Shown here: positions 1,001 to 55,664 of the stretch, piece by piece
Numbering within the stretch: position 1 is the stretch's first letter
Layout: the number at the start of each line of letters is the position of its first letter
DNA from: Solirubrobacterales bacterium
Lineage (GTDB): Bacteria > Actinomycetota > Thermoleophilia > Solirubrobacterales > Solirubrobacteraceae
NCBI GenBank assembly: GCA_019240115.1
Contig: JAFAYV010000025.1
Location: 1-64,000 of the forward strand
Direction of reading: 5' to 3'
DNA length: 64,000 nucleotides
Translations under genes and position numbers: made by a program
The notes under the pieces: generated by a model
What the model was told of the DNA's origin: nothing
The model's database searches: none
The model's input: only the letters and a program-made list of their open reading frames with translations

Positions 1001-1038
1001 CGGCGCGATGCTAGTGGTCGTCCCCGCGAGTACGGTCG

Positions 1039-1118
1039 ACCGAGAGCGCTCACCAGTGGATGCCTGGCGAGGACGCAGAAGTCGACGTGTAACAGCGCTA
1101 CACGAGACTTCGAGGACA
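1039..1118. repeat. dispersed repeat R1, copy 1 (conserved peptide end plus 34-base hairpin)
   Basis: This 80-base block matches 54982-55061 at 75 of 80 positions by my count, with no gaps. Positions 1078-1111 form an interrupted palindrome: GAAGTC..CGTGTA, loop ACAGCGC, then TACACG..GACTTC. On the plus strand the block reads ESAHQWMPGEDAEVDV followed by TAA, the same C-terminal peptide that ends the gene at 53860-55035, but no gene precedes it here. A second conserved piece, starting GTGCTCGAATGC, follows at 1266-1296. Confidence 0.8.
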
Positions 1119-1160
1119 GCCGGACGACGCGAGCGCGGGGCGGGCGGGTCCGGGTCGCGA

Positions 1161-1240
1161 AGCCGGATGCCGAGAGCCGGATGATGCGCGGCGCGCGATC
1201 TGGCGAGGCGGGATGCCGAGCGCGCGCCAGGCGCGAATGC
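1161..1240. repeat. dispersed repeat R2, copy 1
   Basis: Two blocks shared with the aceE-aceF gap at 9989-10127. Block A (about 1164-1209) ends in GATCTGGCGAGGC; block B (1215-1240) starts GCCGAGCGCGCGCCAG. Both copies can fold into an imperfect hairpin around a GCGC-rich centre. It lies between the two conserved pieces of repeat R1, as if inserted there. Confidence 0.65.
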
Positions 1241-1750
1241 AGGCTCGCGCAGGCGCCGCTGGGGGGTGCTCGAATGCGAGCGTACTTGCGGGACGGCCAA
1301 AGTGGCCGCTCCTCAGGGGGTGGTCGCCAGTCATTGGGGATGGCCGCTGGCGCGCCCATCGGGATGAGATGAAGAACCCACACCGCGCGACCCTCCCCGG
1401 GGCCGGCCTGAAGCTTCGGAGGGAGGGGGTAACGCGACATCCGGCGGCGGCGCTGCCGCCCGGCGTCGTAGAACCCCCGTCCACCGGGGGTCAGACGACG
1501 CCGGCCTGCGAGCGCGCCGACCAGAGTCGTAGCGGCCCCACCGAGGTGCGGATGCGGCCCGCCGCGAGCGGCCGACGCTCCGGCGATCAGGCCGCCCCGA
1601 GCCAGTGGCCATCGATCAGTGGGGACGGCGGCGGCGCTCACGGCGCCGGATGAATCCGCAGGGATCCTCAGACGGTCACGCAAGCCGATCCTCAACCCGA
1701 CCGACCCGGCGCGGCACTTCGGCGGCCACCCCGTGATCGAGCGCCCGCGA
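1241..1750. other. gene-poor intergenic region
   Basis: No reading frame here has family resemblance or a convincing start; the open frames are GC-rich shadows. What is visible: the trailing R1 piece at 1266-1296, an inverted repeat CCCTCC/GGAGGG around 1390-1425, and a perfect 7-base-pair hairpin at 1473-1491 (ACCCCCG, loop TCCAC, CGGGGGT) with no T-tract. I see no known riboswitch or small-RNA consensus. Confidence 0.5.
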
Positions 1751-2158
1751 TCAATCATCCAGTGGACGACCGGCGGCCGGCTCCTCGGGGTGATGTGCCT
1801 GCACCCGGTGCCCGTCCGGCACGGCCCCTGCCGGCGGCATGGTCGAGAAGGAGTCGTAGAGCTGTTCGAAGGCCTCGCGCGCGCTGTCGCTCTGGCGCCG
1901 GTCGGCGACCACCGCGACCTGGCGCGTCGCCCGGTCGACGGCGATCGTCGTCCACCCGGCGCCGTTCTCGTGGCTGAGGTGGATGAGCAGCGTGTGCGCG
2001 TCGTGCTCGACGCGGAGGCGATGCGACGGGGCACCAGCCTCGTGCAGGGATCGCAACGTCCGACCGTCGGCATCCTCGCCGGCGACGAACGAGGTCCATG
2101 CCCGGCCGCGCGTCGGCGGACGCGTCAGCCCGTCGCGGTCGCGGTCGCTCGCTGCCAT
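1751..2158 (-). CDS. hypothetical protein (135 aa)
   Basis: Starts MAASDRDRDG and has a patterned middle: HTLLIHLSHENGAGWTTI, then VDRATRQVAVVADRR, consistent with a small beta-sheet domain followed by a helix (AREAFEQLYDSF). No signal peptide or membrane segment. The ATG at 2158 is chosen over upstream in-frame ATGs because a -10-like GATAAT lies 9 bases ahead and upstream starts would run into the divergent gene at 2195. I do not recognise the family; function unknown. Confidence 0.6.
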   Translation of the reverse strand: MAASDRDRDGLTRPPTRGRAWTSFVAGEDADGRTLRSLHEAGAPSHRLRVEHDAHTLLIHLSHENGAGWTTIAVDRATRQVAVVADRRQSDSAREAFEQLYDSFSTMPPAGAVPDGHRVQAHHPEEPAAGRPLDD

Positions 2159-53859: not shown

Positions 53860-55035
53860 ATGCCCAGCCGAGCCACCAAGCGCGGCGCCGATCGCACGCC
53901 GCTGCAGCGCGACTGCGACGTCCTCATCTGCGGCGCGAGCTTCGCCGGACTGGCGGTCGCGCGCGAGCTCGCCGGCAGCGGTGCCGACGTGATGGTCGTC
54001 GACCGTTACGCGATCGGCGAGCGCCAGACGTCGGCGTGCGGGATCCCGACCGCGTGGCTGCAGGCGATGGATCTGCGCGGGGCCGAGCAGCAGAGCTTCG
54101 ACGAGCTCGTCATCCACACCCCGCACGTCACCGTCCGCTACGACCTGCCGTGGACGTTCTCGACCTTCGACTACCGCACGCTGTGCCGCCTGCTCGCCGC
54201 CCAGGGCACGTTCACGTTCGAGACCGCGACCGTGCGCGGGCGCGACGGGGATGTCGTCGAGACCGACCGCGGCCCGCTCCGGGCGCCGCTGATCGTCGAC
54301 GCGCTCGGTTGGCGGCGGGTGCTGAGCCCGGGTGCCAACGTCCAGCCGCCCGACGCGCTGCTCTCGCGCGGGCTCGAGGTGCATCCCTTCGGCGGCGGCC
54401 GCGACCTCGAGGTGTGGATCGACCGCGGCTACGTGCCCGCGGGCTACGGCTGGAGCTTTCCCGCCGGCGAGGAGCTGCGGATCGGCGTCGGCTCGTTTCA
54501 CCCGCGCTTCCACGTCCGCGAGCCGACGATGCGCCTCGCGTCGGACCTCGCCGCCGAGACCGTGCGCTACCAGGGCAACTGGATCCCGCACGCGCTGCGC
54601 CCGGCGACCGAGGACGGCGTGTTCTTCGCGGGCGACTCGGCCGGGCACTGCCTGCCGCTGACCGCCGAGGGGATCCGCACCGCGCTGTACTTCGGCCTGG
54701 CGTGCGGACGCGAGCTGCGCCGCGTGATCGCCGGCGAGCAGAGCCGGGCGCAGGCGCTCGCGCGCTACCACGAGTTCTCGGCCGACCACCGCGTCGCGTT
54801 CGCCTGGATGCTGCGGACGCAGCGGCTCGTCCCGCGGATCGCGCCGCGACTACTCGGCCCCGCGCTGCGGGCCATGGGCGCCAAGCGGTTCGTCGACTGG
54901 TCGTTCGGTCACTACCTGGCGATCGCGCACCCGCGCTTCGTGCCCGCAGCGGCAGGTGTCCGCGTCCGTAAGTCGTGCGGCACCGAGAGCGCTCACTGGT
55001 GGATGCCGGGCGCGGACGCAGAAGTCGACGTGTAG
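53860..55035 (+). CDS. FAD-dependent reductase, geranylgeranyl reductase-like
   Basis: 391 residues. FAD motif VLICGASFAGLAVAREL near 21-37, VVDRYAIGERQTSACG near 47, second FAD motif GVFFAGDSAGHCLPLTAEGIRTAL near 248. Resembles geranylgeranyl reductase/halogenase-like flavoproteins; prenyl or lipid substrate is inferred. Predicted leaderless: TATCAT (53844-53849), ten bases before the ATG. The last 16 residues (ESAHWWMPGADAEVDV) come from repeat R1. Confidence 0.8.
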   Translation: MPSRATKRGADRTPLQRDCDVLICGASFAGLAVARELAGSGADVMVVDRYAIGERQTSACGIPTAWLQAMDLRGAEQQSFDELVIHTPHVTVRYDLPWTFSTFDYRTLCRLLAAQGTFTFETATVRGRDGDVVETDRGPLRAPLIVDALGWRRVLSPGANVQPPDALLSRGLEVHPFGGGRDLEVWIDRGYVPAGYGWSFPAGEELRIGVGSFHPRFHVREPTMRLASDLAAETVRYQGNWIPHALRPATEDGVFFAGDSAGHCLPLTAEGIRTALYFGLACGRELRRVIAGEQSRAQALARYHEFSADHRVAFAWMLRTQRLVPRIAPRLLGPALRAMGAKRFVDWSFGHYLAIAHPRFVPAAAGVRVRKSCGTESAHWWMPGADAEVDV

Positions 55036-55061
55036 CAGCGCTACACGAGACTTCGAGGACA
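54982..55061. repeat. dispersed repeat R1, copy 2
   Basis: 75 of 80 positions match 1039-1118. The hairpin (55021-55054) contains the TAG of the reductase gene, and the second conserved piece (GTGCTCGAATGC ... ACTTGCGGACGG) follows at 55082-55112, only 20 bases away rather than 150. Confidence 0.8.
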
Positions 55062-55436
55062 AAGCCCGGCGCCGCCAGGGAGTGCTCGAATGCCGCAGGA
55101 CTTGCGGACGGGGGCACCAGCGGCACGGCGGCACGTGCCGTCACACGGGCGGCGTAGCCGATTCGCGCGTCGGCGCGCTGGTGATGCTCGGTGGCTGACG
55201 GTCGCGGCCGCCGGGCAGCGGTCCGTTTCGAAGTCGGCTGAGCAGCGTTCCGCCCCCGCGTCGCGCCGATCTCGACGGGATGGCTGGCGGCGCCGGACAG
55301 CCGATCAGCGGAGATGGTCAGTCGAACCTCTGATCGTCAACCGAACCTCTGATCGTCAACGGATAACGGGTAGTACACGCACACACCCACCGGTCGGGCT
55401 CGGCGCCGGCCGGCCAACCAACATGGGAGGGGTCAC
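55062..55436. other. intergenic region upstream of the Gly-rich gene
   Basis: No convincing gene. Contains the trailing R1 piece and a perfect 19-base tandem duplication (55323-55341, 55342-55360; CGAACCTCTGATCGTCAAC), followed by an AT-richer stretch GGATAACGGGTAGTACACG that may hold the promoter of the next gene. Confidence 0.5.
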
Positions 55437-55664
55437 ATGACCGGACGGGACGAGTACGAAGATCAGGGCGGCCAGGGCGGCGGCTACGAGGACGACCCCG
55501 GCGGCGGCGGCGGTGGCGGCGGCGGTGGCGGCTATGAGGACGACCCCGGACGCGGCGGCGGCGGTAGCGGCGGCGGCTACGACGACGACCCCGGCGGCGG
55601 TGGTGGCGGCGGCGGCGGCGACGACCCCGGAGGTGGCGGCGGTCAGGGTGGTGAGAACTACTAG
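55437..55664 (+). CDS. Gly-rich acidic repeat protein (75 aa)
   Basis: Starts MTGRDEYEDQGGQ. More than half the residues are Gly; units of GGGYEDDPG / GGGYDDDPG repeat three to four times. No signal peptide, no membrane helix. A good GGAGG lies about 6 bases before the ATG, which supports translation. Could be a flexible, phase-separating or cell-surface filler protein; nothing is known from the sequence alone. Confidence 0.6.
   Translation: MTGRDEYEDQGGQGGGYEDDPGGGGGGGGGGGYEDDPGRGGGGSGGGYDDDPGGGGGGGGGDDPGGGGGQGGENY

What the first reader, a model, noticed from the sequence alone, without database searches (positions are those of the whole stretch)
54982..55061. Dispersed repeat R1 carries a C-terminal peptide, stop codon and hairpin
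The 80-base block here and at 1039-1118 match at 75 of 80 positions. Both read ESAHxWMPGxDAEVDV then stop, with the stop inside a 34-base interrupted palindrome. In this copy the peptide forms the end of a flavoprotein; at 1039 no gene precedes it. A second conserved piece follows at different distances (20 versus about 150 bases). It looks like a mobile gene-end cassette: it supplies a tail, a stop and a hairpin to whatever it lands behind.
Basis: partly seen in the sequence, partly recalled or inferred. Interest (0 to 1): 0.66.

Follow-up and report, generated by a model that had tools for sequence, protein, structure and literature searches.

The report
Hairpin-shaped miniature transposon in stop codons
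The repeated block is part of a 162-base miniature transposon, folded as one long hairpin, that is scattered through soil bacteria of the class Thermoleophilia; it often lands in the stop codon of a gene without breaking the gene, and its inner hairpin is preserved across the whole class even though its ends differ between lineages.

Summary
The 80-base block is real, matches its partner at 75/80 positions, and has 17 copies in this genome. It is the inside of a larger element, here 54956-55117: 162 bp with terminal inverted repeats, folding end to end into one rod (z about -11). Copies occur in 19 of 28 genomes of the genus. A conserved core occurs in several Thermoleophilia families and in none of 358 other genomes of the phylum.

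Paired changes support the fold: 35 of 58 pairs change on both sides, with invariant internal loops. IS630 (DDE_3) transposons in the same genus carry matching ends (22/25 and 21/25), and an occupied/empty pair shows insertion into the TA of a TAG stop codon. It is therefore an IS630-type MITE.

The element's first G completes TAG, so genes survive; this is the commonest arrangement (24 of about 80 facing gene ends). A peptide tail, as on the flavoprotein, is the exception: no inspected homologue in the genus has it. MITE peptide tails are known from ERIC/RU-1. What is new is the deeply conserved, covarying core joined to exchangeable ends. Its function is not shown.

The parts
54956..55117 (+). 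Complete short-form R1 element (162 bp), one long imperfect hairpin
   Evidence: covariance-model match 175.9 bits over all 162 positions; folds with z -10.7 as DNA
54956..54983 (+). left terminal arm (TIR), GTGTCCGCGTCCGTAAGTCGTGCGGCAC
   Evidence: pairs with 55090-55117; the type-2 consensus of this arm matches the TIR of an IS630 transposon in G001 at 21/25
55090..55117 (+). right terminal arm (inverted repeat of the left one)
   Evidence: pattern match
54953..54955 (+). CAG, left flank; candidate 3-bp target-site duplication with 55118-55120
   Evidence: 3-bp flank repeats in 9 of 80 copies versus 2.5 expected
55118..55120 (+). CAG, right flank; candidate 3-bp target-site duplication
55012..55063 (+). 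conserved core: internal loop GCGGACGCA / CGAGGACAAA around the apical hairpin
   Evidence: invariant loop bases in the genus alignment; core pattern in 115+ Thermoleophilia stretches
55021..55054 (+).
53860..55035 (+). FAD-dependent oxidoreductase (flavoprotein); conserved to about residue 364, last ~26 residues encoded by the R1 element
1014..1300 (+). second R1 copy (long form), left flank TA at 1012-1013; right terminus slightly degraded
1119..1255 (+). extra hairpin repeat(s) (R2) inserted in the long R1 copy, which displace the right arm (approximate limits)

Best explanation
R1 is a non-autonomous miniature transposon (MITE) of the IS630/Tc1-mariner type. Shown: it has 25-28 bp terminal inverted repeats that match those of IS630-family transposons in the same genus. 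It inserts at TA (sometimes with a 3-bp TNA/CAG repeat), and one occupied/empty pair shows insertion into the TA of a TAG stop codon. Inferred: an IS630 transposase moves it in trans. In these GC-rich genomes TA is scarce, and stop codons offer a place where insertion is harmless, because the element begins with G and so rebuilds TAG. Insertions elsewhere in genes are lost, so surviving copies sit flush with gene ends. When an insertion falls just upstream of a stop, as in the flavoprotein, the gene reads into the element and ends at one of its internal stops. Shown: the inside of the element is preserved as a structure (paired changes in the stems, invariant internal loops) across the class. 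Inferred: the hairpin itself, as RNA or extruded single-stranded DNA, is under selection, either to be recognised during movement or to insulate neighbouring transcripts.
For: Copies: 17 matches in own genome; covariance-model matches in 19/28 genus genomes, up to 53 in one. Nearly fixed 162-bp length and GTG...CAC ends. TIR match: G042 IS630, 1249 bp, 22/25 to type 1; G001 IS630, 1249 bp, 21/25 to type 2, both encoding DDE_3 proteins. Empty site: G022 ...AAGTCCTAGATCATCC versus G023 ...AAGTCGTA[element]TAGGTCATCC. Flank statistics. Stop at offset -2 in 24 and -3 in 6 of about 80 gene ends facing an element. Covariation: 35/58 pairs with both-side changes, score 0.436 versus 0.174 shuffled, 0/500; apical helix in 105 class-wide cores 83.6% paired versus 57% after re-pairing.
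Against: Several element-rich genomes (G007, G008, G009, G010, G019, G022, G005) show no DDE_3 match, though these are fragmented MAGs in which repeated IS copies are often lost. No autonomous transposon with these TIRs was found in the window's own genome. TA/TA flanks as such are no more frequent than independent pairing predicts (2-bp matches 27 versus 24.9), and 2-bp and 3-bp flank repeats coexist. Other lineages carry unrelated-looking ends (GAACTCGTTTC..., AGGCTGTTGAAG...), for which no transposase was identified. A function of the core is inferred from conservation only.
Confidence: 0.83

Rival explanations
1. Gene-end cassette: the element is selected because it supplies a peptide tail, stop and terminator hairpin to genes.
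For: Flavoprotein tail; elements sit at gene ends, often between convergent genes; the hairpin is extremely stable.
Against: Only about 8 of about 80 facing genes read into an element. The peptide changes whenever stems change in a paired way. The stop is usually the native TA completed by the element's G. No T-run follows the hairpin, so it is not a canonical intrinsic terminator (sequence inspection).
Confidence: 0.07
2. REP/RAYT-like element: moved as single-stranded hairpin DNA by a tyrosine (HUH) transposase that recognises the conserved core rather than the ends.
For: The core and internal loops are the most conserved part across the class while the ends differ; several element-rich genomes lack DDE_3.
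Against: TIRs with TA/TNA flank repeats and close matches to IS630 ends fit a DDE transposase; REP units are 20-40 bp (PMC3733652) and, from general knowledge, lack target duplication. No RAYT search was made.
Confidence: 0.06
3. Mobile structured RNA (ribozyme or regulatory RNA) spread by a DNA transposon, the RNA being the main selected part.
For: Strong paired changes and invariant internal loops; nearly fixed length of about 160 nt across the class.
Against: No Rfam family matches, even permissively; no expression data; DNA-level hairpin recognition would give the same signal.
Confidence: 0.2
4. The paired changes are an artefact of quasi-palindrome correction (template switching), with no selection on structure.
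For: Long palindromes are prone to such mutation; TIRs of DNA transposons are expected to pair anyway (general knowledge).
Against: The mismatched internal loops (CACCGAGAG/CTCGAATG, GAGGACGCAG/CGAGGAC) are almost unchanged in all 17 aligned copies, and the central one is seen class-wide, although the set was chosen by matching it; template switching should erase loops.
Confidence: 0.1

Closest known systems
RUP (repeat unit of pneumococcus), mobilised by IS630-Spn1
   Same: Small TIR element whose ends match an IS630 transposon and which inserts at TA (PMC2229807).
   Different: RUP is 107 bp and intergenic in one species, with stops in all six frames and no reported core motif; R1 has a class-wide conserved core and sits in stop codons.
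ERIC / RU-1 (enterobacterial MITE)
   Same: Long imperfect hairpin in many dispersed copies; can extend a host protein's C-terminus (E. carotovora amidase ECA3499, PMC2759123), just like the flavoprotein here.
   Different: Different hosts and no relationship known; I did not compare the sequences, and I know of no identified transposase for ERIC.
Correia / NEMIS elements (Neisseria)
   Same: TIR element with TA at its ends; hairpin in transcripts; in-frame fusions to genes (PMC2229807).
   Different: Different size classes and hosts; NEMIS hairpins are proposed RNase III targets, untested here.
bcr1 of the Bacillus cereus group
   Same: Mobile repeat of about 155 bp with a conserved fold (recalled from general knowledge; papers that mention it listed, not read).
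   Different: Different host and, from memory, a different target duplication.

Membership tests
MITE (bacterial miniature inverted-repeat element) | small, non-coding, many dispersed copies | tested here: met
   162 bp (long forms to ~287 bp), 17 matches in own genome, tens in relatives
MITE (bacterial miniature inverted-repeat element) | terminal inverted repeats | tested here: met
   28-bp arms pair in 96% of cells
MITE (bacterial miniature inverted-repeat element) | target-site duplication | tested here: met
   TA at one occupied/empty pair; 3-bp repeats in 9 of 80 versus 2.5 expected. The 2-bp statistic alone is not significant.
IS630/Tc1-mariner-type MITE | TIRs shared with an IS630 (DDE_3) transposon | tested here: met
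   G042 and G001 IS630 ends 22/25 and 21/25, in relatives rather than in the window's genome
IS630/Tc1-mariner-type MITE | 2-bp TA target duplication only | tested here: inconclusive
   TA in the resolved case; TAA, TTA, TGA, TCA and CAG 3-bp repeats also occur
IS630/Tc1-mariner-type MITE | mobilised in trans by the transposase | not testable with these tools
   needs an experiment
Known RNA family (Rfam) | match to a curated covariance model | tested here: not met
   no match at gathering threshold or E<=1 to the element
REP/RAYT | 20-40 bp palindromic unit | tested here: not met
   162 bp with TIR/TA architecture
REP/RAYT | cognate RAYT (tyrosine transposase) gene | not tested
   no search for RAYT genes was made

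The most novel reading that the evidence does not exclude
A class-wide family of mobile hairpins in which the interior, not the ends, is the constant part: the same structured core (RAGGACGCAG - hairpin - CGAGGACG) is carried by different transposon ends in different Thermoleophilia lineages, so the core is a functional structured RNA or DNA that has exchanged its mobilising ends repeatedly.
Probability: 0.35. Interest if true: 0.78.

Novelty: new variant of a known kind. Interest (0 to 1): 0.58.

Why it matters
Bacterial MITEs are usually shallow families defined by their ends. This one can be followed across several families of a class, keeps a covarying structure with invariant loops, and shows how an element can spread through compact GC-rich genomes by using stop codons as landing sites that it repairs itself. 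It makes a testable question of what the inside of a MITE does. It also warns annotators that C-terminal extensions in these MAGs may be transposon-derived.

Tried and rejected
Known RNA (Rfam, gathering and permissive): nothing on the element. Viral contigs: no core match. Plasmid and phage records: no match to the 162-bp element; an earlier plasmid query used a stretch not checked to hold the element and is not counted. Class-wide covariance-model scores alone were not accepted as homology, because a rod scores about 70 bits on its own opposite strand; homology was judged from the conserved core sequence. TA/TA flanks alone as evidence of duplication: rejected after permutation. Autonomous partner in the own genome: not found with either TIR type. 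Literature: no paper on such an element in Thermoleophilia or Solirubrobacter in the open library, which does not cover most subscription journals.

Full report
WHAT IS THERE. The block has 17 matches in the window's genome, a 4.03-Mb, 99-contig assembly. Aligning the flanks shows that it is the inside of a longer element with terminal inverted repeats. In the window the complete short form lies at 54956-55117, exactly 162 bp. The copy at 1039 is a long form (about 1014-1300). That piece is simply the right arm. Shorter relics exist that consist of little more than the two arms, about 40-70 bp.

STRUCTURE. The short form folds end to end as one rod, as RNA (G007 copy, z -11.3) and as DNA (window copy, z -10.7). 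In 17 copies from several genomes, 35 of 58 pairs have changes on both sides; the covariation score is 0.436 against 0.174 in shuffles (0/500), and sliding the partners destroys it. The terminal arms themselves vary in this paired way. The invariant bases lie mostly in the internal loops: CACCGAGAG opposite CTCGAATG, GGATG, and GAGGACGCAG opposite CGAGGAC. The peptide is not what is conserved: paired changes in the stems alter the codons. The 17 sequences are related, so the shuffle counts are not probabilities.

DISTRIBUTION. Within the genus 19 of 28 genomes have matches, with up to 53 in one (a few places are counted on both strands). In a phylum-wide sample the strict core occurs in 5 of 38 genomes of the class and 0 of 358 outside it. 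Across the class the outer arms differ by lineage while length (about 160 nt) and core stay. In 105 distinct cores the apical helix is 83.6% paired, against 57% when partners are dealt anew. The strict pattern fixes the loop, so variation there is underestimated. No matches in viral contigs, plasmids or phage records and none in Rfam.

HOW IT MOVES. Copies begin GTG and end CAC. The flanks are TA|...|TA in 26 of 80, but this is no more than independent pairing predicts; the 3-bp repeats (TAA, TTA, TGA, TCA, CAG) in 9 of 80 are significant (2.5 expected, p<0.001). The window copy has CAG|...|CAG. The clearest single case is a site occupied in G023 and empty in G022...GAGAAGTCCTAGATCATCC... against ...GAGAAGTCGTA[element]TAGGTCATCC..., that is, insertion into the TA of a TAG stop. 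Another occupied junction, hrcA-dnaJ in the window's genome, is empty in most relatives but its flanks are not a clean repeat. IS630-family transposons (Pfam DDE_3, confirmed) in the genus have matching ends: 22/25 for the left end of the G042 transposon against the type-1 arm (its right end matches less well), and 21/25 and 20/25 for the two ends of the 1249-bp G001 transposon against the type-2 arm. Scrambled arms score no better than 13 in the same alignments, against 20 and 17. Against this, several element-rich MAGs have no DDE_3 match, and none of the arm matches found in the window's own genome was tied to a full-length transposon. Mobilisation in trans is therefore inferred.

GENE CONTEXT. 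Of about 80 gene ends facing an element, 24 have their stop codon straddling the border, with TA outside and the element's first G completing TAG; 6 end flush. About 8 read into the element, stopping mostly at +13 or +77. Gene calls used open frames with high third-position GC, so these are estimates. The natural reading is that TA targets are rare in GC-rich genes, stop codons are harmless ones, and the element's terminal G rebuilds the stop. The flavoprotein belongs to the minority: 25 of the 28 genus genomes, the window's included, have a match to the protein; the aligned parts of the homologues stop at about residue 361-372, and none of the C-termini read out has the tail. In G009 a related R1 copy sits at the TAG stop of the same gene.

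COMPARISON. The closest known element is RUP of pneumococcus, whose ends match IS630-Spn1 and which targets TA (PMC2229807). ERIC/RU-1 provides the precedent for a C-terminal tail: amidase ECA3499 is lengthened by the repeat and has lost its own stop (PMC2759123). So the mobile-tail idea is not new. What differs is depth and constancy: a covarying core kept across a class while the ends change. Whether that core is recognised during movement, works as RNA, or insulates transcripts is not shown.

VERDICT. Observation confirmed; interpretation partly right; an IS630-type MITE with high probability; a new variant of a known kind, with an unexplained conserved core.

Noticed in passing
L071:1501-1563 (G000 C19:147452-147514): A second dispersed hairpin repeat, R2 (about 65 bp), is inserted in frame inside an Rrf2-family regulator, adding roughly 24 residues; the Pfam Rrf2 match begins only after the insert. 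It recalls the in-frame Rickettsia palindromic elements (from memory).
   Followed up: partly
L073, L062, L068, L072: R2-type repeats sit between a stop codon (GGATGA) and the next start (GTGAGC), for example at a junction just before a trpB-like gene, sometimes as mosaics of several hairpins.
   Followed up: no
window 1239-1936: A segment of about 700 bp including the right end of the R1 copy is duplicated at C57 (L061:1505-2198) with 619 of 703 aligned positions identical. Nature unknown.
   Followed up: no
L227:1066-1275: Two R1-core copies in direct tandem 163 bp apart sharing a TA border, in a lake MAG (K_DeepCast_65m); fits insertion into the TA at the end of an existing copy.
   Followed up: no
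L212 (FR_37, JAOSKU010000001.1): A Thermoleophilia genome, 4.6 Mb in one contig, with 126 matches to its own R1-type end AGGCTGTTGAAGAATGACG, a good genome for finding the mobilising transposase.
   Followed up: partly
L074 (G000 C93:12284-12445): An R1 copy separates hrcA from dnaJ, a junction that is empty in most relatives.
   Followed up: partly
L159:1659-1750: A TPP riboswitch lies immediately next to an R1-type element.
   Followed up: no
window 55438-55600: Downstream of the element begins an ORF-like stretch of tandem Gly/Asp-rich repeats (GGGGGGGYEDDPG).
   Followed up: no
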